Virus record (IMG/VR): IMGVR_UViG_3300045107_000088
Coordinates: 1 to 20,026 of that record
DNA: 20,026 nt
Source of the DNA: a virus
Reading direction: 5' to 3' (one strand)
Shown piece after piece: positions 883 through 20,026 of the stretch. Positions within the stretch are counted from its first letter, which is position 1, and the number at the start of each line of letters is the position of its first letter. The notes beneath the pieces were generated by a model. It ran no database searches, was not told where the DNA came from, and saw nothing but the letters and a program-made list of their open reading frames with translations. Position numbers and translations under genes: made by a program.

Positions 883-983
883 CCGATCACCGCCGCGAGC
901 GCCCAGTCGCCCCCCCAAAGCACGACGACGCCCAGCGCGGCCGCGGCCACGTCGGGCCAGCGCAGCGAGCGCAGCGCGGTCAT
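879..983 (-). CDS. 34-residue single-pass membrane microprotein
   Basis: A short frame with ATG at 983 overlapping the stop of the repeat protein upstream (ATGA) and a TGA overlapping the ATG of the 245-residue gene downstream (ATGA). After a short N-terminus with two Arg (MTALRSLRWPD), the rest is hydrophobic and could form one membrane helix (about residues 12-33), interrupted by WGGDW. Such peptides in phage early operons are sometimes inhibitors of host membrane processes or superinfection factors, but nothing here shows which. The double ATGA linkage is the main evidence that it is translated. There is no clear Shine-Dalgarno (SD) site, so translation probably depends on coupling. Confidence 0.5.
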   Translation of the reverse strand: MTALRSLRWPDVAAAALGVVVLWGGDWALAAVIG

Positions 984-1456
984 GCTGCGACAGCCTGGTC
1001 GGCGACGTCCTCAGCGAGGAGCCACGCGGTCATTTCGACGGTCTCGCCCGCCGCGAGATAAGCGCGCGCTGCGTCCACCAGCCCGCGGACGAGCGGCAGG
1101 CCCGCTGCCCGCACGGCCTTTTTGGCCCACGCGCGCTTCCTCGCCTCGCTCAGGCGGGCGCGAACCTCAGGGTCGGCCCACGCGCGCTTCGTCGCCTCGC
1201 TTATGCGGGCGCGAACCTCAGGGTCGGCCCACGCGCGCTTGGACGCCTCGCTCAGGCGGGCGCACGCGTCAGGGTCGGCCAACGCGCGCTTCCTCACCTC
1301 GCTCATGCGGGCGCGAACCTCAGGGTCGGCCCACGCGCGCTTGGACGCCTCGCTCAGGCGGGCGCACGCGTCAGGCTGGCACAGCTTGCACACGCCCGTC
1401 TTGGGTGCAGTGCACTCCGCACCAATCGGCTGGAGGCATTTGGCGCGGCGGCTCAT
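980..1456 (-). CDS. Zinc-finger plus NUMOD3-like tandem-repeat protein, 158 aa
   Basis: The ATG at 1456 overlaps the stop of the 25-residue gene as ATGA. A longer in-frame reading upstream to 1642 is Arg-rich, lies over the two preceding genes, and is rejected. Residues 7-26 hold four Cys spaced C-x7-C-x7-C-x2-C, a plausible zinc knuckle. Residues 28-112 are five tandem copies of a 17-residue unit of the type PEVRARLSEASKRAWAD. The SEA-K pattern resembles the NUMOD3 motif, a DNA-binding helix found as repeats in GIY-YIG and HNH homing endonucleases. No nuclease domain follows: the C-terminus (113-158) is Ala-rich, with AGLPLVRGLVDAARAYLAAG. It is probably a DNA-binding accessory protein or the remnant of a homing enzyme. 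Function is inferred. Confidence 0.65.
   Translation of the reverse strand: MSRRAKCLQPIGAECTAPKTGVCKLCQPDACARLSEASKRAWADPEVRARMSEVRKRALADPDACARLSEASKRAWADPEVRARISEATKRAWADPEVRARLSEARKRAWAKKAVRAAGLPLVRGLVDAARAYLAAGETVEMTAWLLAEDVADQAVAA
1121..1375 (-). repeat. Five tandem 51-bp coding repeats
   Basis: Five head-to-tail 51-bp units encode the 17-residue NUMOD3-like repeat. The DNA copies are near-identical (GTCGGCCCACGCGCGCTT recurs with small changes). High nucleotide identity suggests recent expansion, so copy number may vary between related phages. It is coding and not a CRISPR array: there are no unique spacers. Confidence 0.85.
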
Positions 1457-1530
1457 CCGCCCAGCCCCAGCGCGGCCTTGTAGGTCGGCGCCGCACGCGC
1501 GTCGGCTGCCCATGCGTCCTGGTCGCTCAT
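1453..1530 (-). CDS. 25-residue microprotein with a strong ribosome binding site
   Basis: A very short frame: ATG at 1530, TGA at 1455-1453. The ATG overlaps the stop of the upstream recombination-partner gene (ATGA) and the TGA overlaps the ATG of the repeat protein (ATGA). Seven bases upstream of the ATG sits a strong SD core (GGAAGGAG), encoded inside the end of the upstream gene, a good reason to believe it is translated. The product starts MSDQDAWAADARAAPTYKAA and ends LGLGG. No domain is recognisable. It may mainly couple its neighbours' translation, or be a small effector. Confidence 0.55.
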   Translation of the reverse strand: MSDQDAWAADARAAPTYKAALGLGG

Positions 1531-2192
1531 GCCACCGCTCCTTCCGCAAGCCGCTCGCGGGCGGCGTTGACGGCCGCGAGCGCGCGCTCGCCGATCTTCG
1601 CCTGCGCCGGGCTGCCGCCCAGCAGGCGCGCAAACGCCTCATCCTCGCGCGACCGGATCGTGTCCACGTCGGCGACCAGCTCGCACGCGCCCAGCTCCGC
1701 CTCCAGGTCCGCCAGCCAAACCGTGGCCGTGCGCGGACGCGGCGCCGGACCGACCTCGCCGGTTTCGGGATTGTGGGCGGGCTGCCGAGCAGACGGGATG
1801 TCCATCGGCTGCACGTTCCACGGCGCCTTGCGACCGCGCGTCACCATCACGGCAACCGTCTGGCCCTCGCTCATGTGGCTCATGTGGCTGATGCGGATGC
1901 CGCCTACCTGAAGCCCGCCAAACTGTACCCTGTCGTCGCGGTACACCCGCAGAGCGCGGCCGACGTATTTGGAAGCGTTCGGCCCCCACACCGCGACCAT
2001 GATGCGCCGCATCGTCTTGCATGGCTTGTATGGCTTCCCATCGTCGCCTTCGTAGAACATGCTGATCGGCTGTTCCGCGCTGTCCGGGTTGGCCGATACC
2101 TTTCGGATCACCAGCACCTTCGGACCGCCCATCAAATCGTCTGCGGTGAGCTGATCGCTCTTCGCCACAATAAACTGCGTCATGTCCACCAT
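1527..2192 (-). CDS. Conserved phage protein beside YqaJ exonuclease, candidate recombination partner
   Basis: About 221 aa. I chose the ATG at 2192 because GAGG lies six bases upstream. The ATG at 2204, overlapping the exonuclease stop (TAATG), is an alternative. The recognisable core reads FYEGDDGKPYKPCKTMRRIM, then VWGPNASKYVGR, YRDDRVQFGGLQVGGIRISHMS and a basic segment RGRKAPW. To my recollection this block is typical of hypothetical proteins that sit next to YqaJ-type exonucleases in phages. By analogy with lambda exo/bet it could be the single-strand annealing or ssDNA-binding partner, but it does not obviously match RecT, Beta or ERF, so that role is inference. The C-terminal quarter is a helical Ala/Glu/Arg segment. 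Transcription is from the left promoter with the exonuclease. Confidence 0.7.
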   Translation of the reverse strand: MVDMTQFIVAKSDQLTADDLMGGPKVLVIRKVSANPDSAEQPISMFYEGDDGKPYKPCKTMRRIMVAVWGPNASKYVGRALRVYRDDRVQFGGLQVGGIRISHMSHMSEGQTVAVMVTRGRKAPWNVQPMDIPSARQPAHNPETGEVGPAPRPRTATVWLADLEAELGACELVADVDTIRSREDEAFARLLGGSPAQAKIGERALAAVNAARERLAEGAVA

Positions 2193-4664: not shown

Positions 4665-5270
4665 TCACGACAGCCTTCTCCCCCAGCGCGAGAGCGTCCC
4701 GCGAACGGGCGTCGCCCAGTCGACCGCCACGTCTTCCATGTCGGGCGCGTTCAGCGAGCGGAGCGTGTAGCGGCCGGGCGCCGAGCCGCGGGCCAGCTGC
4801 TTCAGATAGACCTCGCCGGTGGCCAGCTTCGCGACCACAAACGAGCCGACGTAATCGGCATCAACGCCGTCGCGGTCGCGACTGATGTAGACGATCTCGC
4901 CATCTAGGAACTTCGGCCACATGCTGTCGCCGGCAATTTCAAGCCCGATCAAATCGCCCATTGCGTCGGGCGGCCGGATCACGCGATCAAAGCCCTCGTC
5001 CAGCGGATAGGCGTCCTCGAAGAGCACCGATCCGCCCGCCCCAACCTTGCCGACAACCGGCACCTCGTTCGTTCTCCCGAAAAGCGCGTCCGCCGTAACG
5101 CCCAGCAGGCGCGACAACGCATCGACTTCCTCAACCGACGGACTGCGCTTTCCGGCCTCCCAGCGCTGAATGGTTGGCTGCTCGACGCCAAGCGCGTCGC
5201 CAACCTCGCGCTGGCTGTAGCCCTTGGCCAGCCTGGCAGCTTTGAGACCCTTCAACGCCACTGATCGCAT
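4665..5270 (-). CDS. CI/LexA-type phage repressor with S24 autopeptidase domain, 201 aa
   Basis: Master repressor of lysogeny. Residues 7-63 form an HTH_3 domain (LKAARLAKGYSQREVGDALG, then PTIQRWEAGKRSPS). The C-terminal domain is a LexA/CI S24 peptidase: GDSMWP gives the nucleophile Ser116, and VYLKQL gives the general base Lys157. Ala78-Gly79 in KVGAGGSV is the likely self-cleavage bond in the linker. RecA-stimulated cleavage after DNA damage is therefore expected. The start at 5270 directly abuts an operator (5271-5285) and has no SD, suggesting a leaderless message. An ATG at 5285, inside that operator, would add five residues. Longer in-frame starts up to 5363 overlap the Cro-like gene and all three operators and are rejected. 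It should bind the ATRCCGNNNCGGYAT sites and repress both promoters. Confidence 0.93.
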   Translation of the reverse strand: MRSVALKGLKAARLAKGYSQREVGDALGVEQPTIQRWEAGKRSPSVEEVDALSRLLGVTADALFGRTNEVPVVGKVGAGGSVLFEDAYPLDEGFDRVIRPPDAMGDLIGLEIAGDSMWPKFLDGEIVYISRDRDGVDADYVGSFVVAKLATGEVYLKQLARGSAPGRYTLRSLNAPDMEDVAVDWATPVRGTLSRWGRRLS

Positions 5271-5285
5271 ATGCCGCAACGGCAT
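5271..5285. promoter_or_regulatory. Repressor operator, right site 3 (next to repressor start)
   Basis: ATGCCGCAACGGCAT is a perfect inverted repeat with 6-bp arms and 3-bp spacer. It abuts the repressor start codon, so binding here would switch off the repressor's own gene, as OR3 does in lambda. Confidence 0.8.
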
Positions 5286-5296
5286 GGCCGGGCGTA

Positions 5297-5311
5297 GAGC
5301 CGGAACGGCAT
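5297..5311. promoter_or_regulatory. Repressor operator, right site 2 (weaker)
   Basis: GAGCCGGAACGGCAT has one consensus arm and one arm matching at 4 of 6. It is centred 26 bp from site 3 and 33 bp from site 1. The imperfect arm suggests lower affinity. Confidence 0.6.
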
Positions 5312-5317
5312 AGCCCC

Positions 5318-5347
5318 TTGTGCGCGCATATACCCTTTCGGTATGAA
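5318..5347 (+). promoter_or_regulatory. Right early promoter (PR-like)
   Basis: TTGTGC (5318-5323) and TATGAA (5342-5347) with an 18-bp spacer. Predicted transcription start falls at about 5354-5356, on or next to the ATG of the Cro-like gene at 5356. The boxes are moderate matches, but their overlap with an operator supports the call. Confidence 0.6.
5330..5344. promoter_or_regulatory. Repressor operator, right site 1 (overlaps right promoter)
   Basis: ATACCCTTTCGGTAT has arms matching at 5 of 6. It overlaps the -10 region of the rightward promoter for the Cro-like gene, so occupancy would block rightward early transcription. Confidence 0.75.
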
Positions 5348-5355
5348 TTACAGCC

Positions 5356-5595
5356 ATGCGCATAGATCAGGCAGTCCGAACGTGGCGCGAGGCGGCGGGG
5401 CTTACCCAAGCGGCAGCAGCCGCGCAGGTTGGCATCACGCAAGCGGCATGGAGCCGCGTGGAGAGCGGCGCCCGGTTCCCCGATGAGAGCACGGCCGCAA
5501 AGCTGATCGCCGCAGGCGTGTTCACCGCTGAAGAGTGGGGACGCGCCGCCATAGCTCGCGCGGAAACCGGCTCCGAGGCCGTTGCCGCCGCATGA
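5356..5595 (+). CDS. Cro-like HTH regulator, 79 aa
   Basis: Small XRE-type DNA-binding protein divergent from the repressor. Residues 5-42 read AVRTWREAAGLTQAAAAAQVG, then ITQAAWSRVESGARFP, a standard helix-turn-helix. It is followed by STAAKLIAAGVFTAEEW and a short Ala-rich tail. The size and location fit a Cro/CII-type regulator that opposes the repressor at the shared operators. The ATG at 5356 has no SD and sits at the predicted transcription start, so the message is probably leaderless. The TGA overlaps the next start (ATGA). Which operators it prefers cannot be told from sequence. Confidence 0.85.
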   Translation: MRIDQAVRTWREAAGLTQAAAAAQVGITQAAWSRVESGARFPDESTAAKLIAAGVFTAEEWGRAAIARAETGSEAVAAA

Positions 5596-6646: not shown

Positions 6647-6843
6647 CGACGATTGCCTGCAAGGACGGCGTTATCGCCGCCGATACCGCCTGCCACTCCG
6701 ACGGGCTGTTGATTGGCGCGCCCGGCGACCGCCCGCCGCGATCGCCCGAAGAGCGCGCGATCGAAGCAGCGCTGGCTGCCCGCAACGCCAAGGCCGACGC
6801 AGCCCGCGCCGCCAAGCGCGAGCGCGAGAAGGTGCGCAAATGA
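6643..6843 (+). CDS. 66-residue protein with a proteasome/HslV-like N-terminal fragment
   Basis: Overlaps both neighbours by ATGA. The first 20 or so residues (MTTIACKDGVIAADTACHSD) resemble the start of phage Ntn-hydrolases of the HslV/20S-proteasome type, in which the Thr after Met is the nucleophile. That fold needs about 170-200 residues, but here the sequence moves at residue 25 into an Ala/Arg/Glu/Lys-rich helix (SPEERAIEAALAARNAKADA) and stops. It is therefore likely a truncated and re-used relic, or a small protein with chance resemblance. Translation is supported by the overlaps. Confidence 0.6.
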   Translation: MTTIACKDGVIAADTACHSDGLLIGAPGDRPPRSPEERAIEAALAARNAKADAARAAKREREKVRK

Positions 6844-7805
6844 CCGAGCGCGGCGACATCGGGAAGCTGATGCCGACGGTTGCGCGCGCGCTGCTTGGCG
6901 AGCCGGTGCGCGAGCACTCCACGCCCAAGGACTGGCGCTATGGTCGCAAGGGGTCGCTCTCGATCGACATCGAGCGCGGCACCTGGTTCAGCCATGAAGA
7001 GGATGCCGGCGGCGGCGTGCTGGACCTGATCCGCCGCGAGCGGAAGTGCAGCGTCGCCGAGGCGCTGCGCTGGATCAAGGACGATCTGGGCGCGACGATC
7101 GAGCCGGTGCGCGACACCACCCGCCCGCCCGCACCGCGCGCCAATTACACCGACCTGGCAGTGGCTATGTGGCACGAGTCCATCCCGGCCGCGGGCACGC
7201 TCGCCGAGCGCTATCTGCGCGGTCGCGCGCTGCCGTGCCCGGACTGGCTGCGCTTCCACCCCCGCGCGCCGTTCAAGAAGGACGACAGCGGCGCGCGGCG
7301 CCTGCTGCCCTGCATGATCGCGCCCATGCGCTCGCTGATCGACGGGCGGATCACCGGCGTGCACCGCACGGCGCTCACGCCTAGCGGCCAGAAGGTCGCC
7401 AAGGCCATGCTGGGCGTGTGCGAGGGCGCGGGGATCTGGCTGCGGCCCGTCAGCGAGCCCGACGCCGAGCTGGGCGTGTGCGAGGGTATCGAGACCGGGC
7501 TGGCGCTGATCGAGCTTGGCTGGAGCCACGCGCTGCTTGCGTGCGCCGATGCAGGCCGGATGCGTCGCCTGCCGCTCTTGGACGGCATCGCGCGCCTGAC
7601 GATCTTCGCGGACAACGACCTCCCCGATAGCGACAAGCCGTGCCCGCGCTTCCCCGATTTCGGCGGCGAGGGGGTCGCGTCCGCGCGTGCGCTTGCGGAA
7701 CGCTATATCGAGCATGGCGTCGTGACCGGCATTCGTGTGCCTGATCGACCGGGCGACGACTTCCACGACGAATGGGTTCGCGCGGCTGCCGAGACTGCAG
7801 CATGA
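6840..7805 (+). CDS. Toprim primase-like protein, 321 aa
   Basis: Replication protein with a primase-type N-terminus and a Toprim domain. Residues 32-64 (WRYGRKGSLSIDIERG, then WFSHEEDAGGG) match the CHC2-like region of phage primases but lack its zinc cysteines. The Toprim domain starts at VCEGIETG (213-220, Glu215), continues with IFADND (255-260, Asp258 and Asp260), and a further acidic segment is GDDFHDEW (305-312). These acidic residues bind the metal for primer synthesis. The domain order matches phage and plasmid Toprim_3 primases. The start overlaps the previous stop (ATGA) and the end overlaps the helicase start (ATGA), so primase and helicase are co-translated. Priming activity is inferred from the family. 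Confidence 0.85.
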   Translation: MTERGDIGKLMPTVARALLGEPVREHSTPKDWRYGRKGSLSIDIERGTWFSHEEDAGGGVLDLIRRERKCSVAEALRWIKDDLGATIEPVRDTTRPPAPRANYTDLAVAMWHESIPAAGTLAERYLRGRALPCPDWLRFHPRAPFKKDDSGARRLLPCMIAPMRSLIDGRITGVHRTALTPSGQKVAKAMLGVCEGAGIWLRPVSEPDAELGVCEGIETGLALIELGWSHALLACADAGRMRRLPLLDGIARLTIFADNDLPDSDKPCPRFPDFGGEGVASARALAERYIEHGVVTGIRVPDRPGDDFHDEWVRAAAETAA

Positions 7806-9007
7806 TGGCGAGCCGAGCCGAACCCCCAGGGCAGCCGCTGCCGATCCGCCCGTCCGCGACGCTCGATCCACGCCCGGTCCGCTGGCGCGACGAGGCCGCG
7901 ATTCCGCCGCGCGAATGGCTCTATGGCCGCCACTTGGTGCGCGGGCGCGTGTCGCTGACGATTGCGCCAAGCGGCGTCGGCAAGACCGCACTCAGCATAT
8001 CGGAAGCGCTCTGCATGGCGTCGGGCCAGTGCTATCTGCACCACATCCCCGCCCAGCCGATGCGCGTCTGGCTGTACAATCTCGAGGAGGATTCTGACGA
8101 GCTGGAGCGGCGCTGGCGCGCTGCCGCCAAGCAGTTCGGCCTGCACGAAAGCGACATTGCTGACCGGCTGCTAGTATCCTCCGGTTTCGATCAGCCGCTC
8201 ATCATCGGCCGGTCAGGCCCCGACGGAGTGGTGATCGACCGCGGGCTGGTCGACGAGCTGGTGCGCGTCATCCGCACGATACGCATCGACGTGCTGACCG
8301 TGGACCCGTTCGTGTCGTCACACGGCCTGGAAACCGAGAACGACAATGCCGGCATGGACGCGCTGCTGAAGCAGGGCTGGGCGCAGGTCGCTCATCGCGG
8401 CAACTGCGCGATCGACCTCATCCATCACGTCCGCAAGCTGAACGGCGAGCAGGTGACGGTCGATAGCGCCCGCGGCGGATCGGCCATGGCGGGCGCGGTC
8501 CGTTCGGTCCGCTGCCTCAACGGCATGACGAAGGAGGAAGCCGAGCGCGCCGAGATCGACCCGAAGCGCGCGTGGGCCTACGTCCGCATCGATGACGGCA
8601 AGCGCAACATGTCGCCCAAGGCCGAGCGGGCCGACTGGTTCCAGCTTCACAGCGTCGAACTCGACAATGGAGACAGCATCGGCGTGGCCCGCAAATGGGC
8701 CTGGCCTGCCGACGATGAGCTAACCATGCTGGCGATCGATGCAGTGCAGGCGCGCATCGGCGATGGCGACTGGAAGGCTTCGCCGCGCTCCAAGGCGCGT
8801 TGGGCGGGGCTGGCGGTCGCCGAGGCGCTGGACCTCGATGCAAGTAATCCTGAGGCGCGCATGGAGATCAAAGCCAAGTTGTCGTCTCTAATCGAGGCAG
8901 GATGGCTGAAAGAAGAGGAAGGACGTGACAATGAAAACCGGATGAAGACCATATTCGTGCGGATCGGCCGCCGCGCGGGCGCCAGAGGCATGGGAACTGG
9001 GGAGTGA
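7802..9007 (+). CDS. RepA-type (AAA_25) RecA-fold replicative helicase, 401 aa
   Basis: ATPase of the RecA superfamily resembling the hexameric RepA helicase of RSF1010 and phage equivalents. Walker A is APSGVGKT (55-62). WLYNLEED (90-97) is the second motif region, with the acidic catalytic position. Walker B is LTVDPF (165-170) with Asp168. DLIHHVRK (205-212) carries the motif-3 histidines, and SARGGSAMAGAVRS is the sensor-like loop. The C-terminal 110 residues look like a winged-helix add-on (AVAEALDLDASN, LSSLIEAGWLKEEE). ATG 7802 overlaps the primase stop; ATG 7805 is also possible. Directly downstream is the iteron region, which the helicase is likely to be loaded on. Confidence 0.88.
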   Translation: MMASRAEPPGQPLPIRPSATLDPRPVRWRDEAAIPPREWLYGRHLVRGRVSLTIAPSGVGKTALSISEALCMASGQCYLHHIPAQPMRVWLYNLEEDSDELERRWRAAAKQFGLHESDIADRLLVSSGFDQPLIIGRSGPDGVVIDRGLVDELVRVIRTIRIDVLTVDPFVSSHGLETENDNAGMDALLKQGWAQVAHRGNCAIDLIHHVRKLNGEQVTVDSARGGSAMAGAVRSVRCLNGMTKEEAERAEIDPKRAWAYVRIDDGKRNMSPKAERADWFQLHSVELDNGDSIGVARKWAWPADDELTMLAIDAVQARIGDGDWKASPRSKARWAGLAVAEALDLDASNPEARMEIKAKLSSLIEAGWLKEEEGRDNENRMKTIFVRIGRRAGARGMGTGE

Positions 9008-10315: not shown

Positions 10316-10719
10316 TTACCGATTCGGATTTTGAACTCATCTGCCAGCGCATCGAAGAAGGCGAAAGTATCACTGCGGTCTGCAAAGAGACCGGAATGCC
10401 GTCAGTGCGATGTTTTTATCGAGCACTGACTGACCAGAACAAGCAGCAGCGATACGCACGCGCGCGCGAAGTGCAGATGCTTGGCGAGGCGGATCGCATT
10501 CTTGACGTGGCGTCCGATAAGTCGCTGACGCCGGAGGATCGTCGCGTTGAAGTGGATGCCCGCAAGTGGCGCGCGTCGAAGCTCGCCCCCAAGCGCTATG
10601 GAGACCGCCTCGATGTGACCAGCGGTGACAAGCCGCTGATGGACATGGACCCGGAGCGCGTGGCTGCGCGCGTCGCCGAGCTGATGGCGCGCGCCAAGGC
10701 GCGGGTGGAGACGGCGTGA
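10312..10719 (+). CDS. terS: Terminase small subunit, 135 aa
   Basis: DNA-recognition subunit of the packaging motor. GTG 10312 is preferred over ATG 10300 because GGAGG lies five bases upstream and it overlaps the previous stop. The N-terminal half carries a helix-turn-helix (SDFELICQRIEEGESITAVC, then GMPSVRCFYRAL). The next part is the family's typical helical oligomerisation region (YARAREVQMLGEADRILDVA, VEVDARKWRASKLAPKRYGD). The C-terminal helix (DPERVAARVAELMARAKARV) would contact the large subunit. Length is normal for the family. Base composition in the first 150 bp is a little less GC-rich than the neighbours. Confidence 0.85.
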   Translation: MITDSDFELICQRIEEGESITAVCKETGMPSVRCFYRALTDQNKQQRYARAREVQMLGEADRILDVASDKSLTPEDRRVEVDARKWRASKLAPKRYGDRLDVTSGDKPLMDMDPERVAARVAELMARAKARVETA

Positions 10720-12526: not shown

Positions 12527-14179
12527 GTGGCGCTCTCGGACGCCGAAACCATCAAGCGCTGCCGCCAGCGCCTTGTCGGCTTGAAGAACGAACGCGCGAG
12601 GGGCTGGGAAAGCGAGTGGCGCGACATCGCGCAGGTCTGCCAGCCACGCCGCAGCCGCTTCCTGACAAGCGACGCCAACCGTGGTGACCGGCGCAACCGG
12701 CGGCTGAAGGACAACCACGCAATCTGGGCGAGCGGCGTGCTCCAAAACGGCATGGCGTCGGGCATCACGTCCAAGGCGATGCCATGGTTCAAGCTGACGG
12801 TCGCTGATGACGATCTGGCGGAGTTCGGGCCGGTCAAGGAGACGCTCGACGACTATACCGAACGGCTGCGCACACTGTTCGCGGACACCAACTTCTATTC
12901 GGCCGCCAAGACAGTGTACGGCGAGCTGGGTCTGTTCGGAACCGGGTCGCTTGTCACCGTCGAGCATCCCAAGCGCATGGCGGTTTTTTTCCCGCTGACG
13001 GCTGGCGAATATTGGATCGCGCTTTCGACGGCGCTGGAGCCGCACGTCCTCTACCGGCAAACCGCGATGACTGCCGAACAAATGGTGGCGATGTTCGGCC
13101 GCCAGAAGGTGCGCCAGACGGTGCGCGATGCCTACGATCGCGGCAACGCCGACACGACGTTCACGGTCATCCACGCAATCGAGCCGAACGACGATCGCGA
13201 CCTCCGCTCAAAGAGCGCGCGCGACATGGCGTTCCGATCGGTCTATTTCGAAGAGGGTTCGGGCGACACCGACATGCCGCTGCGCGTGTCGGGCTATGAG
13301 AGCCAGCCCTTCGTCGCGCCGCGCTGGGACGTCCTGGGGTCGGATAGCTACGGCACCGGGCCGGGCAGCATCAGTCTGGAGGACGTGCGCGGGCTGCAGC
13401 ACGCAGCCAAGCGGCGGATGCACGCGATGGACTATCTCGTGATGCCGCACCTCAAGGGGCCGGCAAAGCTCGCCGCCGCGCACAACGGCTTCATGCCGGG
13501 CGAGATGACCGCGGTGGCCGCAGCCGACGACGGGCAGGTTGGGCCGATGTGGACCGTGCCGCCGCAGGCGCTAAGCGCGATCCAGGTGGATGTGGACGGC
13601 TACCACCAGCGCATCAGCCGCGCCTACTACGCGGACCTGTTCCTCGCGATCACCAACATGCCGGGCGTGCAGCCGCGCACGCTGGAAGAGATCGCCCGAA
13701 GGAATGAGGAGAAGTTGAGCCAGCTCGGCCCCGTCATGGACCGGCTGGATAACGAGATGCTCATTCCGTTGATCGACCGGACGTTCGATCTTGCGTGGCG
13801 CTCCGGGCTGCTGCCACCGCCGCCCGAAGAGCTGCACCGCCAGCCGCTCAAGATCAAGTTCTCGTCGATTTTGCACCAGCTGCAGGAAATGGCCGGGCTG
13901 GCTCCGATCGAGCGCACTGCGGCGTTTGTCGGCAATCTGGCGGGCGTGTGGCGCGAGGCTGCGGACAAGCTCGATCCGGACCAGGCCATCGACGAATATG
14001 CACGCCGCACCGGAGCGCCCGCCCGCGTCATCCGCTCGGACGAGAAGGTCGATCAAGTGCGGCAGGCACGAGCAAGCCAAGAGCTGCAGGCGCAGGCCGC
14101 GCAGATGGCGCCCGCGGTGAAGGATGGGGCGCAGGCCTACAAGCTGCTCGCCGAAGCGCAGCAGCGGAGCGCCGCGTGA
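12527..14179 (+). CDS. Portal / head-tail connector protein, 550 aa
   Basis: Forms the dodecameric ring at the DNA-entry vertex in T7-like podoviruses. GTG 12527 follows the small gene by one base. Features typical of the T7 Gp8 / BPP-1 portal group: CRQRLVGLKNERARGWESEW, then RDIAQVCQPRRSRF near the N-terminus; NHAIWASGVLQNGMASGITS and PWFKL at about 65-90; FGTGSLV in the wing; a conserved loop GPGSISLEDVRGLQHAAKR at about 280-298; and RRNEEKLSQLGPVMDRLDNE at about 388-407 in the stem and crown. The C-terminal Gln/Ala-rich helix (SQELQAQAAQMAPAV) fits the crown. Length is usual. The stop overlaps the next start by GTGA. Confidence 0.92.
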   Translation: MALSDAETIKRCRQRLVGLKNERARGWESEWRDIAQVCQPRRSRFLTSDANRGDRRNRRLKDNHAIWASGVLQNGMASGITSKAMPWFKLTVADDDLAEFGPVKETLDDYTERLRTLFADTNFYSAAKTVYGELGLFGTGSLVTVEHPKRMAVFFPLTAGEYWIALSTALEPHVLYRQTAMTAEQMVAMFGRQKVRQTVRDAYDRGNADTTFTVIHAIEPNDDRDLRSKSARDMAFRSVYFEEGSGDTDMPLRVSGYESQPFVAPRWDVLGSDSYGTGPGSISLEDVRGLQHAAKRRMHAMDYLVMPHLKGPAKLAAAHNGFMPGEMTAVAAADDGQVGPMWTVPPQALSAIQVDVDGYHQRISRAYYADLFLAITNMPGVQPRTLEEIARRNEEKLSQLGPVMDRLDNEMLIPLIDRTFDLAWRSGLLPPPPEELHRQPLKIKFSSILHQLQEMAGLAPIERTAAFVGNLAGVWREAADKLDPDQAIDEYARRTGAPARVIRSDEKVDQVRQARASQELQAQAAQMAPAVKDGAQAYKLLAEAQQRSAA

Positions 14180-15181: not shown

Positions 15182-16174
15182 ATGGCTGTCATCGGCGCAA
15201 ACAATGCAACCATCATCGACATTGCGAAGCGGTTCAGCGACGATGGAGCGCTGCTACAGATCGCGGAAATTCTGAACCAGAACAATGAGTTTCTGGAAGA
15301 CATGCCGATGATCGAGGCCAACATGGGCCTCAGCCACAAGACCTCCGTCCGCACTGGGCTTCCGTCGGCAACGTGGCGTCTGTTCTATCAGGGCGCGTCG
15401 CAGAACAAGAGTACCACCGCCGTCGTCACCGACACTTGCGGTATGCTCGAAACCTACTCGATCATTGACCGCGACCTCGCCGACATCAACGACAACGCCA
15501 AGCTGTTCCGTAGGAGCGAGGACGTGGCGTTCATCGAAGGCATGGCGCAGCAGGCCGCGCAGGCGGTCATCTACGGCTCGGTCGCGTCGAACCCCGAACG
15601 CATCCAGGGCCTCAGCCCGCGCTACAATTCGCTGTCTGCCGCGTCCGGCTCCAACATCATCAACGCCGGTGGCTCGACCAACGGCCAGCAGACCAGCTTC
15701 TGGCTTGTCGTGTTCGGCGAGCGGACCGTCCACGGCTTGTATCCCAAGGGATCGAAGGCCGGGCTGCAGTATGAGGACGTGACGACGTCCCAGCCAATCG
15801 ACGATGGCAGCGGCGGCAAGTACCAAGCCTATCAAACCAAGTATCAGTGGAAGCTGGGCTTGAGCGTTCGTGACTGGCGCTATGCGGTCCGCGTCTGCAA
15901 TATCGACGTGCCGGGCCTTGCTGGTGCATCGCCGGTCAACCTGCAGCGGCTGTTCATCCGCGCGATGAACAAGGTTCCGAACCTGAAGGCGGGCAAGGCG
16001 TGCTTCATCGTCAACCGCGCCGTGCGGACGTGGGCGGACATTCAGCAGAGCGAGAAGCCGACGCTGGGCTTCCACATGGTGGAAGACGCGCAGGGCAAGC
16101 CGCTGCTGTCGTTTCGCGGCATCCCGCTGCGCCTGTGCGACCAGCTCCTCACGACCGAAAACGTCGTCAGCTAA
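15182..16174 (+). CDS. Major capsid protein, 330 aa (BPP-1 Bbp17-like)
   Basis: HK97-fold shell protein. ATG 15182 has GGAG six bases upstream. The length (330 aa) and sequence style fit the Bordetella phage BPP-1 capsid protein group: IDIAKRFSDDGALLQIAEIL at the N-terminal arm, PMIEANMGLSHKTSVRTGLP, DRDLADINDNAKLFRRSED, then AQAVIYGSVASNPERIQGLS, and a C-terminal FHMVEDAQGKPLLSFRGIPL. No fused protease or extra domain is apparent. It follows the scaffold by three bases and precedes the cement protein, the expected order. Assignment is by recalled family features, not by a database search. Confidence 0.9.
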   Translation: MAVIGANNATIIDIAKRFSDDGALLQIAEILNQNNEFLEDMPMIEANMGLSHKTSVRTGLPSATWRLFYQGASQNKSTTAVVTDTCGMLETYSIIDRDLADINDNAKLFRRSEDVAFIEGMAQQAAQAVIYGSVASNPERIQGLSPRYNSLSAASGSNIINAGGSTNGQQTSFWLVVFGERTVHGLYPKGSKAGLQYEDVTTSQPIDDGSGGKYQAYQTKYQWKLGLSVRDWRYAVRVCNIDVPGLAGASPVNLQRLFIRAMNKVPNLKAGKACFIVNRAVRTWADIQQSEKPTLGFHMVEDAQGKPLLSFRGIPLRLCDQLLTTENVVS

Positions 16175-16186
16175 AGGACCGGACCC

Positions 16187-16621
16187 ATGCTTATCGACCG
16201 GCAATCCACCGTCAGCCTCAACCAGGCGATCACTGCGACAGCGGTCTCGACCGACAGCATCGACCTTCGCAATGCGCGCGATCTGGGCGCAGGCGACCCG
16301 ATCGAGCTTGTCATCATCTGCACGCAGAGCGTGGCGGGCGGCGCCAGCATCAACTTTGAGTTGATCACCAGCGCCAACAGCGACCTCAGCTCGCCCACCA
16401 GCCTCGTCAGCACCGGCGCAATCGCCGTGGCCAGCATCACGGCGGGCACCGAATGGCTGCGCATCCGCGTGCCGGTTGCCGACCTGTCCCGCTATCTGGG
16501 CGTGCGCTACACCGTCGTCGGCACGCCGACTGCAGGCACGTTCACTGCGACCTTCACCGCGGATCAGAACCGCCAGGCCAACCGGCAGTACGCGTCGGGC
16601 GTGCCGGTAGGCGGCTACTAA
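16187..16621 (+). CDS. Bbp16-family capsid cement protein, 144 aa
   Basis: In BPP-1 this protein is a jelly-roll trimer that bolts capsomers on the outside of the shell. ATG 16187 has AAGGA eight bases upstream. The product starts MLIDRQSTVSLNQAITATAV and continues STDSIDLRNARDLGAGDPIE, the recognisable Bbp16 opening. It is then almost all beta strand with Thr/Val alternation (RYTVVGTPTAGTFTATFTAD). It ends with GVPVGGY. It directly follows the major capsid gene, as in BPP-1. Function is known for the family and is inferred here. Confidence 0.85.
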   Translation: MLIDRQSTVSLNQAITATAVSTDSIDLRNARDLGAGDPIELVIICTQSVAGGASINFELITSANSDLSSPTSLVSTGAIAVASITAGTEWLRIRVPVADLSRYLGVRYTVVGTPTAGTFTATFTADQNRQANRQYASGVPVGGY

Positions 16622-16636
16622 CGAGAGGCACCAGCT

Positions 16637-16843
16637 ATGCCGAAGTTCCGAGCGCTGCAGACCACGCAATATCTCGACACCATCGTCAACGCCGGGTTCG
16701 AAGGCGACTGGCCGGACAGTGCGATGCTCTCCGCGGACACGTGGGAAGCCGTCAATCCCAAAGACAAGGCCGCGGCTGCGATGCTTGTCGAAGGCGGATC
16801 GACCAACGTGAACGTGCAGCTGGCGGAACAGCCCGCCGACTGA
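16637..16843 (+). CDS. Small virion-module protein, 68 aa
   Basis: ATG 16637 with GAGAGG eight bases upstream. The product is acidic (MPKFRALQTTQYLDTIVNAG, DWPDSAMLSADTWEAVNP, then NVNVQLAEQPAD), with no membrane segment or Cys. It lies between capsid cement and tail adaptor, where small head-completion or neck proteins are common, but no family is recognised. It ends at the start of the second copy of the 52-bp repeat. Confidence 0.65.
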   Translation: MPKFRALQTTQYLDTIVNAGFEGDWPDSAMLSADTWEAVNPKDKAAAAMLVEGGSTNVNVQLAEQPAD

Positions 16844-16889
16844 CGCCTACAATCGGGGTGCAATGCGCGCCTCGGCTGTAACCGTTTGC
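16838..16889 (+). repeat. 52-bp dispersed repeat, copy 2
   Basis: Starts at the last codon and stop of the 68-residue gene, spans the 19-base gap, and includes the first nine codons of the tail adaptor gene. It is 38 of 52 identical to 12265-12316, including GACTGACGCCTACAATC. The ATG of copy 2 is ACG in copy 1. Possible late promoter (TACAAT at 16848-16853). Confidence 0.5.
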
Positions 16890-18728
16890 AATCGCGCGCT
16901 GGCGCTTGTGCCAGCCAACGCGATCGCCTCGCTTGACGAGAACAGCCTTGAGGCGCGCGAGTGCGCGCGCGTCTACCAGGACGCGATCAACGAAGCAGTC
17001 GAGCGCGGACAATGGTCCTTCGCCCGCGACCGGGTGGCGCTCGCGCAGGTGGCGAACCGGCGCCCGGACGAATGGGCCTTCGCCTACGCGCTGCCCACCA
17101 CCGGGCAAGTCGTGGGCGTGTTCCCAGCCACCGGCGAGCCGATCGATTTCACCTCCTACGACTATGACAGCGAGGCGCGCTGGGGGCGGCCGATCGACCG
17201 CACAGTTCGCTATATCGTCGCGGCGGATGCGCTCTATACCGATCTCGCCGATGCGCAGGCCGACATTGCGCTGACCGACCCGGACCCGAGCCGCTTTCCG
17301 CCGCTGTTCGCCGCGGCGCTGGCCGTCGACGTGGCTGCGCGCGTGTGCATGGCGATCACCAAATCGTCGAACCGCCAGCGCGAGCTGATGATCATGGCGG
17401 AGACGGCGTGGGACCGCGCGCTCAGCCACGAGCTCAACGAGCGCCGCTCCAAGCCCAACCTGTATCTGGGTGGCAGCGTCACGGGCGCGCAGCCGGGCTA
17501 TTCCGCGTCGGCACTCTCGCCATCCGGGCTGACGGTTCAGTCTACGCTGTCTTCGCAGATCAGCGATTTCAGCAGCGCAGTGCGAGCCCAGATCGTCGCC
17601 ACGCTCATCGCTGGGTCGAACATCACACTGACGCCGCAGGGCGACGGCTCGGCGGCGACCATCCGCATCGCAGCGGCAGGCGGCGGCAGCGGCGGAGTCT
17701 CGGACGGGAACAAGGGCGACATCACCGTCTCGAACAGCGCTGCCACATGGACCGTGAACGCGTCGGTGCTGGCCGGGCGCGAGCCAGCGATCACCGCGGG
17801 CACCACGTCGCAATATTGGCGGGGGGACAAGGCGTGGGCGACGCTCGATCGCACGGCCGTCGGACTGGGCAATGTCGATAACACCTCCGACACCGGCAAG
17901 CCCGTCAGCACCGCGCAGGCCGCTGCCATTGCCACCAAGCTGAACGCCTCCGTCGTGTCCACCTTCGGGCTTGGCCTGATCGGCGTGGCCGACGCAGCGA
18001 CTGGGCGCACCACACTGGGCCTGGGGACTGCTGCAACCGCCGCGGCGAGTTCGTTCGAACCAGCCATTACTGCGGGCAGCGCAAGCCAATATTGGCGCGG
18101 CGATAAAGCCTGGGCGACGCTGAACGCTGCGGCAGTGGGGCTGGGGAACGTCGACAACACGTCGGACGCGAACAAGCCGGTCAGCACCGCGCAGGCGACG
18201 GCGATCGGCGCGAAGCTCAATGCCTCGGCCGTATCGACCTTCGGGCTGTCGCTGGTGGGCGCCGCGGATGCAGCAGCCGCGCGCACGACGCTGGGCCTGG
18301 GCACGGCCGCGACCGCGGCGGCGTCGTCGTTTGAGCCAGCCATCGCCACCGGCACCACCGACCAATATTGGCGCGGCGACAAGACGTGGGTGGCGCCTCC
18401 CATCGTCGTTGCCTTCGGGTGGTCGGGCAAGCCCGGCGCGTCCGACGTGCAGTCGGTCTGGCCGGAGCGCAGCTTCACGATAGCCTCCGGGTCCACCGAC
18501 AAGCGCGGGCAGATTGCAGTCGGTGCGACCGGAACGGCCGTCGATATCACCGTCAACCGCAACGGCACGACGATCGGGACGATCCGCGTTCCAACGACCA
18601 CGGGCGCGCCCACGTTCAGCTTTCCGTCCGCCGTGTCTGGCAGCGCGGGCGACCGGCTCGATTTCATCGCGCCTGCCACACAGGACGCGACGCTTTTCGG
18701 CGCGCGTTTCCAGATCATCTTGCGTTGA
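16863..18728 (+). CDS. Tail tubular A (Gp11-like) adaptor fused to fibre repeats, 621 aa
   Basis: Residues 1-205 match the T7 Gp11-type head-tail adaptor: VCNRALALVPANAIASLDE, ARECARVYQDAINEAVERGQ, WSFARDRVALA, and a helical FPPLFAAALAVDVAARVCMA, ending about where the separate protein normally ends (T7 Gp11 is about 196 aa). A Ser/Gly-rich linker (about 206-280) leads into tail-fibre repeats: two full 92-residue copies (307-398 and 399-490, 83% identical) plus a third partial copy (491-509). They contain the known fibre motif GLGNVDNTSDANKPVSTAQ. The end (515-621) is a beta-rich tip-like domain (SFTIASGSTDKRGQIAVGAT and so on). The frame is unbroken. It likely builds the adaptor ring and carries fibre or receptor-contact material on it. 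Linkage and roles are inference from recognised motifs. Confidence 0.85.
   Translation: MRASAVTVCNRALALVPANAIASLDENSLEARECARVYQDAINEAVERGQWSFARDRVALAQVANRRPDEWAFAYALPTTGQVVGVFPATGEPIDFTSYDYDSEARWGRPIDRTVRYIVAADALYTDLADAQADIALTDPDPSRFPPLFAAALAVDVAARVCMAITKSSNRQRELMIMAETAWDRALSHELNERRSKPNLYLGGSVTGAQPGYSASALSPSGLTVQSTLSSQISDFSSAVRAQIVATLIAGSNITLTPQGDGSAATIRIAAAGGGSGGVSDGNKGDITVSNSAATWTVNASVLAGREPAITAGTTSQYWRGDKAWATLDRTAVGLGNVDNTSDTGKPVSTAQAAAIATKLNASVVSTFGLGLIGVADAATGRTTLGLGTAATAAASSFEPAITAGSASQYWRGDKAWATLNAAAVGLGNVDNTSDANKPVSTAQATAIGAKLNASAVSTFGLSLVGAADAAAARTTLGLGTAATAAASSFEPAIATGTTDQYWRGDKTWVAPPIVVAFGWSGKPGASDVQSVWPERSFTIASGSTDKRGQIAVGATGTAVDITVNRNGTTIGTIRVPTTTGAPTFSFPSAVSGSAGDRLDFIAPATQDATLFGARFQIILR
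17781..18389 (+). repeat. 276-bp coding tandem repeat in the fibre part
   Basis: Two full 276-bp units (17781-18056, 18057-18332) and 57 bp of a third (18333-18389). Each encodes 92 residues starting EPAI and ending AAASSF. The DNA has drifted at many third positions while protein identity stays high, so the repeat is not very recent and appears to be under protein-level selection. Confidence 0.9.
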
Positions 18729-18739
18729 GGGAGGACGAA

Positions 18740-19249
18740 GTGGCTTGGGCTGCACCCCAGACCGATGCCGAGCTTGCGGACCGGCAGTCCGAAGAGGGCT
18801 ACCAGGCGTATCGCGCGGCGCGGCTGCGCGTCTCCGCCCAAGGCCGCACGCTCTTGGAAGCGCTCGCGCCACTCGTTGCCAATGGCGACTTCGCGGGGCT
18901 GGCCCAAGCGACGCGGGAGGTCCGCACCAACTACGATAGCTACATGGCGCACGTCGCGGTCAACGCAGCGCGCGTGGCTGCAGGTAACCCGTCCTACATC
19001 GGCCCGCCCGAAGCTGCCGACCAGCTCGCGCAGCTCGACCAGATCGCGGCGGGCATGGCGCGCTTTGCCGACGGTATCGACGCCTGGACCGTCTCGCTCA
19101 CCCAGTTGGCAGGCGGGGCGCCGTCGCCTGATGCGGCGAGCGCGCTCAACGCCCAGGCGGGCTACTGCCACGCTGCTTCTGCCACCCTGCGCGCGATCCT
19201 CGTGGACTACGCTGCGGCTCGGCTGGGGCTGATCCCGCCAACGGGCTGA
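18740..19249 (+). CDS. Helical virion-module protein, 169 aa
   Basis: GTG 18740 has GGGAGG five bases upstream. The in-frame extension back to 18368 is only the shadow of the fibre gene. The product is nearly all helix, with charged heptad-like stretches (LADRQSEEGYQAYRAARLRV, ADQLAQLDQIAAGMARFADG) and a single Cys. It lies between the adaptor-fibre fusion and a surface protein, so it could be a fibre chaperone, an internal tail protein or an assembly factor. No family recognised; the position supports a tail-related role. Confidence 0.7.
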   Translation: MAWAAPQTDAELADRQSEEGYQAYRAARLRVSAQGRTLLEALAPLVANGDFAGLAQATREVRTNYDSYMAHVAVNAARVAAGNPSYIGPPEAADQLAQLDQIAAGMARFADGIDAWTVSLTQLAGGAPSPDAASALNAQAGYCHAASATLRAILVDYAAARLGLIPPTG

Positions 19250-19254
19250 TCGCC

Positions 19255-19995
19255 GTGGCGCGCCCTACCGTCCAAGCAAGCACAAGCTGGCGTTCGCTGC
19301 GGGTCACCAGCGCCACCGGGTCGCTGACGGTCCCTGCGGGGCTGTCCAACGCGATGATCTCGGTTGCCGTGCACGCGTATGACGGCGGCAACTCGGCGGT
19401 GCTGTCGTCGATCATCACCGGAGTCACGTGGACGCCTTCGGGTGGTTCGGCAGTCGCGCTGACGGAAGCGACCGGCGCGCGCGTCAGCCAGGGCGGCGCG
19501 GGCTATTCGGGCTACAGCTCGGATACCGGCTTGTGGTATTTGGCGCTGGGCGACACGTCGTCATCGGTTGCCGGCACGATCGCGGTAAGCGGATCGAACA
19601 ACATCTACGCCGTCGCGGCCGTGGTCTGGGACAATACCGACCAGACCACGCCGATCTCGAGCTCTAGCGGCGCGGGAGCTTACCAGAACAGCACGGCGGC
19701 GCGCACGTCGTCGCTGGGCTCGCTGAACAGCAACGACACAGCGTTCGCGGCCTATGGCTGGGACTCGGCGGGCCGAACCCAGTCGGGCGGAACGAACATC
19801 ACGCTCACGAACGGCGCGAGCATGGTCAATCCGGGGATTTCGGCCGACTACAGCACCGCCGCGTCGCCTTCGATCACCTGGACGCCCAGCCCGGCCACTT
19901 GGCGTTCGGCGGCGTTCATTGCGACGATCAAGGGCTATTCGGCGGGCGGTGTTGCAGTGTCCTGCGGCTATGTCCTCATCCAGAGGCCCTGCTGA
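19255..19995 (+). CDS. Beta-rich surface or tail protein, 246 aa
   Basis: GTG 19255, six bases after the previous stop; only a weak SD is visible. The protein is rich in Ser, Thr, Gly and Ala with many short strands (STSWRSLRVTSATGSLTVPA, ISVAVHAYDGGNSAVLSSII, TWTPSGG repeated as WTPSPATW). One half consists of loops such as SSSSGAGAYQNSTAARTSS. Such composition is common in phage capsid decoration, tail and receptor-binding proteins, and in C-terminal carbohydrate-binding folds. It ends GVAVSCGYVLIQRPC, with two Cys that may bond. The 3' neighbour starts at the overlapping TGATG. No catalytic motif is visible. Function inferred from location and composition only. Confidence 0.7.
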   Translation: MARPTVQASTSWRSLRVTSATGSLTVPAGLSNAMISVAVHAYDGGNSAVLSSIITGVTWTPSGGSAVALTEATGARVSQGGAGYSGYSSDTGLWYLALGDTSSSVAGTIAVSGSNNIYAVAAVVWDNTDQTTPISSSSGAGAYQNSTAARTSSLGSLNSNDTAFAAYGWDSAGRTQSGGTNITLTNGASMVNPGISADYSTAASPSITWTPSPATWRSAAFIATIKGYSAGGVAVSCGYVLIQRPC

Positions 19996-20026
19996 TGGCG
20001 TTCCGCGTAGCATTGCCCAATTTCAG
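19995..20026 (+). CDS. Start of the next late gene, cut by the right edge
   Basis: The ATG at 19995 shares its A with the preceding stop (TGATG), the usual overlap in this phage. Only MAFRVALPNF can be read before the window ends. It is presumably another tail gene, but nothing about function can be said. Confidence 0.55.
   Translation, partial: MAFRVALPNF

What the first reader, a model, noticed from the sequence alone, without database searches (positions are those of the whole stretch)
16863..18728. Fusion of a Gp11-type tail adaptor with tail-fibre repeats
In T7-like phages the tail tubular protein A is a separate protein of about 200 residues, and fibres attach near the junction of tubular proteins A and B. 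Here a complete adaptor-like domain (1-205) is joined by a Gly/Ser linker to a fibre-like repeat array and a tip-like domain. One gene would then give twelve built-in spikes per ring instead of a separate trimeric fibre. I am not aware of this as a standard arrangement, so it may be a new way of anchoring receptor-binding material.
Basis: partly seen in the sequence, partly recalled or inferred. Interest (0 to 1): 0.65.

Follow-up and report, generated by a model that had tools for sequence, protein, structure and literature searches.

The report
Tail-ring protein with built-in fibre arm
One gene of a temperate short-tailed phage joins the ring protein that attaches the tail to the head with a fibre-like arm that is normally a separate protein; the join looks real, and cholera phages such as VP2 already carry a comparable but unrelated arm on the same ring protein.

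Summary
Window 16863-18728 is one open frame of 621 residues. Residues 1-198 are a complete tail-adaptor domain: phrog_394, E 2.4e-36; predicted fold best matches the Carin1 connector (Z 17.9) and T7 gp11 (Z 13.1). Residues 206-621 are fibre material: two 92-residue repeats (76/92 identical, 41 of 76 shared residues in different codons), part of a third, then a β-rich end. The phage is BPP-1/epsilon15-like, not T7-like. I found no match for this fusion: 85 of 85 IMG/VR adaptors examined stand alone, and 79 of 79 with room are followed at once by a nozzle-sized frame; here no such frame follows before the record ends. Adaptors with long extensions are nevertheless known: Vibrio phages VP2, phiVC8 and K298 have adaptor + Ig domains + Gly-rich tip in 741-750 residues, and phiVC8's was found in virions as a 74-kDa band; two metagenomic phages carry the extension at the N-terminus. 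So this is a new variant of a known kind. Likely mechanism: a 12-fold adaptor ring whose C-terminal arms leave at the neck and carry adhesive material. Arm position, oligomer state and receptor binding are inferred. A deletion in a decaying prophage that removed the nozzle is the main rival.

The parts
16863..17456 (+). tail adaptor domain, residues 1-198: four-helix bundle with a β 'dock' between helices 2 and 3
   Evidence: phrog_394 E 2.4e-36; AlphaFold2 pLDDT mostly 75-97 apart from a loop at about 91-110; Foldseek 8ck1 E 7.4e-13; Z 17.9 to the Carin1 connector, Z 13.1 to T7 gp11
17457..17534 (+). predicted flexible joint, about residues 199-224
   Evidence: pLDDT under 50 at 200-227; no meaningful alignment to relatives beyond about residue 205
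17535..17780 (+). small helix-helix-β unit and GGGSGG linker (residues 225-306) at the base of the arm
   Evidence: weak predicted helices 225-233 and 238-249 and strands 253-258 and 265-270, pLDDT about 46-68; GGGSGG at 273-278
17781..18332 (+). two 92-residue fibre repeats (residues 307-398 and 399-490)
   Evidence: 76 of 92 identical, 41 of 76 shared residues in different codons; fibre PHROGs; same motif in fibre-like frames of 9 IMG/VR loci
18333..18725 (+). partial third repeat and β-rich C-terminal end (residues 491-621), possible tip
   Evidence: repeat start EPAIATGTTDQYWRGDKTW; seven strands predicted but block means of pLDDT 43-64 only; no tblastn relative of the last 109-112 residues among phages or plasmids
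15182..16174 (+). major capsid protein, GP7 type
   Evidence: Pfam GP7 E 2.5e-118
16187..16621 (+). cement protein, Bbp16 type
   Evidence: Pfam Bbp16 E 4.1e-27
16637..16843 (+). 68-aa protein in the position of bbp15
   Evidence: position only; no family match
12527..14179 (+). portal protein
   Evidence: Pfam Head-tail_con E 5.2e-135
18740..19249 (+). 169-aa protein of unknown function where relatives have the nozzle gene
   Evidence: GTG start after GAGGGAGGA; no family match and no phage relative
19255..19995 (+). 246-aa protein of unknown function
   Evidence: no family match below E 0.1; no phage relative

Best explanation
The gene makes a two-in-one virion protein. Shown by sequence and predicted fold: the N-terminal third is a tail adaptor of the BPP-1/epsilon15/Carin1 kind, and the rest is fibre-type repeat material ending in a β-rich stretch. 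Inferred: twelve copies form the ring on the portal, as in other adaptors; each chain leaves the ring through a flexible joint at its C-terminal end, near the portal clip at the neck; the arms stay as twelve whiskers or bundle (for example as four trimers) and serve as host-surface adhesins. The arm needs no anchor domain of its own because it is covalently part of the ring. The nozzle gene, which normally follows at once, is assumed to lie beyond the record's end, after the two small genes at 18740-19995.
For: Adaptor domain complete to its natural C-terminus and with the right fold. The neighbouring head genes checked read open and match their families. Codon-diverged repeats imply long maintenance. 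Uniform GC3 across the joint and no separate start. Precedent: VP2-type adaptors with Ig stalk and Gly-rich tip; phiVC8 ORF14, 741 aa, identified as a 74.1-kDa virion band by SDS-PAGE and mass spectrometry (PMC4802629, passages). Adaptor C-termini embrace the portal in T7 and SU10 (passages).
Against: No second genome with this fusion was found. No nozzle within the 1.3 kb left downstream, whereas 79 of 79 relatives with at least 1 kb have a nozzle-sized frame directly after the adaptor. An exit at the portal side may be sterically tight under the capsid vertex. No data on receptor binding, and the C half could not be modelled (mean pLDDT 38.2).
Confidence: 0.6

Rival explanations
1. A decaying prophage: an in-frame deletion removed the nozzle gene and joined the adaptor to a downstream fibre gene; the product is not part of working virions.
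For: Nozzle-sized frame absent where 79 of 79 relatives have one. The window carries a lysogeny-type repressor. The fibre half lacks a recognisable N-terminal anchor. No relative shares the fusion.
Against: The break lies at the natural end of the adaptor domain and keeps frame. Terminase, portal, protease, capsid and cement genes read open and match their families. Repeats are codon-diverged yet conserved in protein.
Confidence: 0.2
2. A chimeric metagenome contig joined two unrelated genomes inside this gene.
For: Single linear contig without a near relative to check it; fibre repeats are a typical place for assembly errors (general knowledge).
Against: GC3 and GC are even across the joint; an in-frame join exactly at a domain border would be a coincidence; the joint itself is not repeated sequence (repeats start at residue 307).
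Confidence: 0.1
3. The arm is not a host-binding fibre but a structural or decorative extension, comparable to Hoc-like Ig domains, for example to brace neck and capsid or to dock another fibre such as the products of 18740-19995.
For: VP2-type extensions consist of Ig domains matching Hoc-like decoration families, and phiVC8 has a separate tail fibre gene as well (PMC4802629 passage).
Against: The repeats here match fibre and minor-tail families more than decoration families.
Confidence: 0.3
4. One mRNA gives both a free adaptor and the fusion, by internal initiation, frameshift or proteolysis at the joint, so that only some ring subunits carry an arm.
For: The predicted flexible joint at 200-227 would be open to a protease; steric crowding would favour fewer than twelve arms.
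Against: No start codon with a Shine-Dalgarno-like motif in the C half and no Met there; no stop to read through.
Confidence: 0.1

Closest known systems
Vibrio phage VP2 / phiVC8 / K298 'tail tubular protein' (phrog_9239)
   Same: Adaptor domain at the N-terminus (phrog_394), linker, stalk of repeated β domains, tip-like C-terminal domain, one gene of 741-750 aa
   Different: Stalk is Ig domains (Hoc-like) and tip is Gly_rich_2; nozzle (phrog_376) follows directly; the window matches phrog_9239 over the adaptor only
BPP-1 Bbp14, epsilon15 gp11, Carin1 connector (8ck1)
   Same: Homologous adaptor domain and same gene neighbourhood upstream
   Different: Stand-alone proteins of 201-223 aa, followed directly by the nozzle gene
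Metagenomic podoviruses ctRVW222 (MW202478) and ctype202 (MW202473)
   Same: Adaptor domain joined to a long repeat-bearing domain in one gene (652 and 753 aa)
   Different: Order reversed: adaptor at the C-terminus (421-636, 520-735); a long gene follows directly (phrog_376 match shown for L115)
T7 gp11 / SU10 gp11 with separate fibres
   Same: Adaptor ring is also the fibre attachment site
   Different: Fibres are separate trimers held non-covalently on adaptor docks (passages)

Membership tests
BPP-1/epsilon15-type tail adaptor (phrog_394) | Whole-domain sequence match | tested here: met
   E 2.4e-36, profile 2-178 of 190
BPP-1/epsilon15-type tail adaptor (phrog_394) | Adaptor fold: four-helix bundle with β dock | tested here: met
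   AlphaFold2 helices 3-15, 29-48, 147-166, 169-196 with strands between; 8ck1 Z 17.9 over 181 residues, rmsd 3.8
BPP-1/epsilon15-type tail adaptor (phrog_394) | Gene lies after cement protein and small gene, and directly before the nozzle gene | tested here: inconclusive
   Upstream order met; no nozzle before the record ends at 20026, two small genes follow instead
BPP-1/epsilon15-type tail adaptor (phrog_394) | Dodecameric ring on the portal | not testable with these tools
   Monomer predictions only
VP2-type extended adaptor (phrog_9239) | N-terminal adaptor plus long C-terminal extension | tested here: met
VP2-type extended adaptor (phrog_9239) | Ig domains and Gly_rich_2 tip; match along the 741-position profile | tested here: not met
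   Match only at profile 3-152; no Pfam Ig or Gly_rich_2 match in the C half, whereas VP2 gives both
Phage tail fibre | Fibre-type repeat sequence | tested here: met
   phrog_35419 and phrog_24919 tail fibre, phrog_523 collar fibre
Phage tail fibre | Trimeric, receptor-binding | not testable with these tools
   Needs protein work
T7 gp11 family proper | Match to a Pfam family of tail tubular proteins | tested here: not met
   No such Pfam match; similarity to T7 gp11 is by fold only (Z 13.1)

The most novel reading that the evidence does not exclude
Covalent attachment of adhesive arms to the adaptor ring arose repeatedly in BPP-1/epsilon15-like podoviruses: Ig plus Gly-rich arms in VP2-type phages, N-terminal repeat arms in ctRVW222/ctype202, and fibre-repeat arms here. 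It would then be a general alternative to docking separate trimeric fibres, giving a 12-fold (or 4 x 3) collar of receptor-binding arms at the neck.
Probability: 0.35. Interest if true: 0.6.

Novelty: new variant of a known kind. Interest (0 to 1): 0.4.

Why it matters
If the arms bind the host, symmetry, copy number and position of receptor-binding material are set by the portal-adaptor ring instead of by six docked trimers, which bears on how short-tailed phages sense a receptor and trigger opening. It also warns annotators that 'tail tubular protein A' genes can carry receptor-binding material. The comparison with VP2-type and N-terminally extended adaptors makes the idea testable in cultured phages.

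Tried and rejected
These scans need short exact or nearly exact peptides, so 'none' is weak. A tblastn of the whole protein against 50,697 phage records found 81 records; the 40 listed match the fibre part only (best coverage 35%), 41 were not listed.

Do the two parts occur as separate genes in one phage? 0 of 48 adaptor-bearing records have the fibre array (48 of the loci then in hand were given, not all); the tool adds that an empty answer without a positive control shows nothing. 0 of 9 fibre-repeat records have phrog_394, while BPP-1 as control did.

Was the fusion inherited together with VP2's? On a 46-row adaptor tree the window sits on a long, unplaced branch, the fused label needs 3 changes, and one clade of the four C-fused rows is not rejected (AU p 0.244). 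So independent origin is suggested only by the unrelated C-terminal parts. Near-identical adaptors (12 of the 34 non-redundant IMG/VR rows) were left out of that tree, as were ct3Et533 and the redundant rows.

AlphaFold2 of the C half failed (mean pLDDT 38.2); I ran no fold search on it. The VIA-align list covers model residues 1-207 only, so it says nothing about the arm.

Papers: searches turned up no listing that describes an adaptor-fibre fusion; only listings and passages were seen, and most subscription papers are not held. No paper on Carin1 was found.

Full report
What is there. The window is a whole linear virus record of 20,026 bases. Left to right it carries a lysogeny and replication part (RecE-like exonuclease 2204-2956 minus, repressor 4665-5363 minus, primase- and helicase-like genes 6840-9004), small terminase (10318-10716), large terminase, portal, protease, capsid (GP7), cement protein (Bbp16 type), a 68-aa gene, then the gene in question. 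This is the head module of BPP-1 and epsilon15, seen in much the same order in both, rather than that of T7.

The gene. 16863-18728 is one frame of 621 residues. Because long antisense frames also exist here (706 and 544 aa), homology is the evidence. Residues 3-198 match phrog_394 (E 2.4e-36); in Bbp14, epsilon15 gp11 and the others aligned this domain is the whole protein. The profile of 14 adaptors finds the Carin1 connector 8ck1 (E 1.7e-49). AlphaFold2 with 35 sequences gives four helices with a β dock between the second and third, pLDDT largely above 90; best solved match 8ck1 (Z 17.9, 181 residues, rmsd 3.8), T7 gp11 Z 13.1. Residues 200-227 are predicted disordered. After a small unit with a GGGSGG stretch at 273-278 come two 92-residue repeats (76 of 92 identical; 202 of 276 bases; 41 of 76 shared residues in different codons; 1000 shuffles at that offset gave at most 18 matches) and a β-rich end that could not be modelled well (block means of pLDDT 64 at best). 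The same repeat motif occurs in frames of 9 IMG/VR loci; none of their 9 records holds an adaptor.

Is the joint real? The adaptor is complete, the joint keeps frame, the C half has no Met and no start with a Shine-Dalgarno-like motif (ten GTG, one TTG examined), and GC3 is even. Against it: I found no second example, and no read data can be seen.

Relatives. I read the adaptor gene in 24 phage records chosen from hit lists (not a random sample): 18 are alone (183-226 aa), one has a domain inserted (ct3Et533, 276 aa, E1_FCCH), two are extended at the N-terminus (ctRVW222 652 aa, ctype202 753 aa), three at the C-terminus (VP2 741, phiVC8 741, K298 750 aa). In IMG/VR, 85 adaptors (80 and 5 of the 9 capsid loci; of the other four the adaptor was cut by the locus end, not in the fetched stretch, or the same as another's) are all alone, at most 231 aa; 79 of 79 with at least 1 kb downstream have a nozzle-sized frame at once. 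That test is by length; of these I confirmed only L010 as phrog_376. In the window the next genes are 169 and 246 aa, without family, and the record ends.

Precedent. The VP2 protein is adaptor (1-189), Ig domains (about 225-480) and Gly_rich_2 (489-736), and it matches phrog_9239 over its full length. 38 listed phage records, some being duplicate deposits, hold 68-81% of it in one place. In phiVC8 the 741-aa ORF14 was identified by SDS-PAGE and mass spectrometry as a 74.1-kDa virion protein, and its authors thought it might recognise the host (PMC4802629, passages); in the passages I saw the adaptor domain is not mentioned. Alteromonas phage ZP6, described as closest to that genus, has a tail tubular gene at 7,023-7,613, about 196 aa (PMC8515928, passage), so related genera differ in having the extension. 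In BFVD, 8 of the 50 listed fold matches of the adaptor model are proteins of 492-1139 aa, two of them Vibrio phage entries of the VP2 kind (VP2, JSF9); I could not see where the adaptor lies in the others.

How it probably works. In T7 the C-terminal helix of gp11 embraces the portal stem, and in SU10 an embracing loop runs between portal clip domains, while separate fibres dock on the outer face of the adaptor (PMC6702177 and PMC9509320, passages). By fold match the window's last helix (169-196) ends about where that segment begins, so the arm should leave at the neck on the portal side. Twelve arms, or four trimers, would form a collar. That the arm is adhesive is inferred from the fibre-type repeats and the VP2 comparison. 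Shown: adaptor identity, fibre identity, single frame. Inferred: ring, exit point, copy number, host binding.

Verdict. Real, unusual, but with clear precedent in kind: a new variant of extended tail adaptors. The missing nozzle keeps a prophage deletion alive as a rival.

Noticed in passing
L115:1241-3199 (MW202478) and L119:926-3187 (MW202473): Tail tubular protein A genes of 652 and 753 aa with the adaptor domain at the C-terminus after about 420-520 residues with short β-type repeats: the reverse order of the window's fusion.
   Followed up: partly
L117:2501-3331 (MW202510): Adaptor of 276 aa with an E1_FCCH-like domain inserted at residues 80-135, probably inside the region corresponding to the β dock.
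   Followed up: no
L005 (OQ414635) and L114 (OQ414636): Locus tags of the Pelagibacter phages Hodr and Baldr look swapped: the Hodr record bears 'Baldr' tags and the Baldr record bears 'Hodr' tags.
   Followed up: no
L004 (PQ492659): Limnohabitans phage DC33 is filed under Inoviridae although it carries a BPP-1-type capsid, cement, adaptor and nozzle-sized gene.
   Followed up: no
window 980-1642, minus strand: 220-aa frame with a tandem repeat of about 14-15 residues (RAWADPEVRARxSEA-like); weak match to phrog_22215 of unknown function.
   Followed up: no
window 18740-19995: Two genes without any detected relative stand where the nozzle gene is in relatives; they may belong to the arm, for example as a chaperone or second appendage part.
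   Followed up: partly
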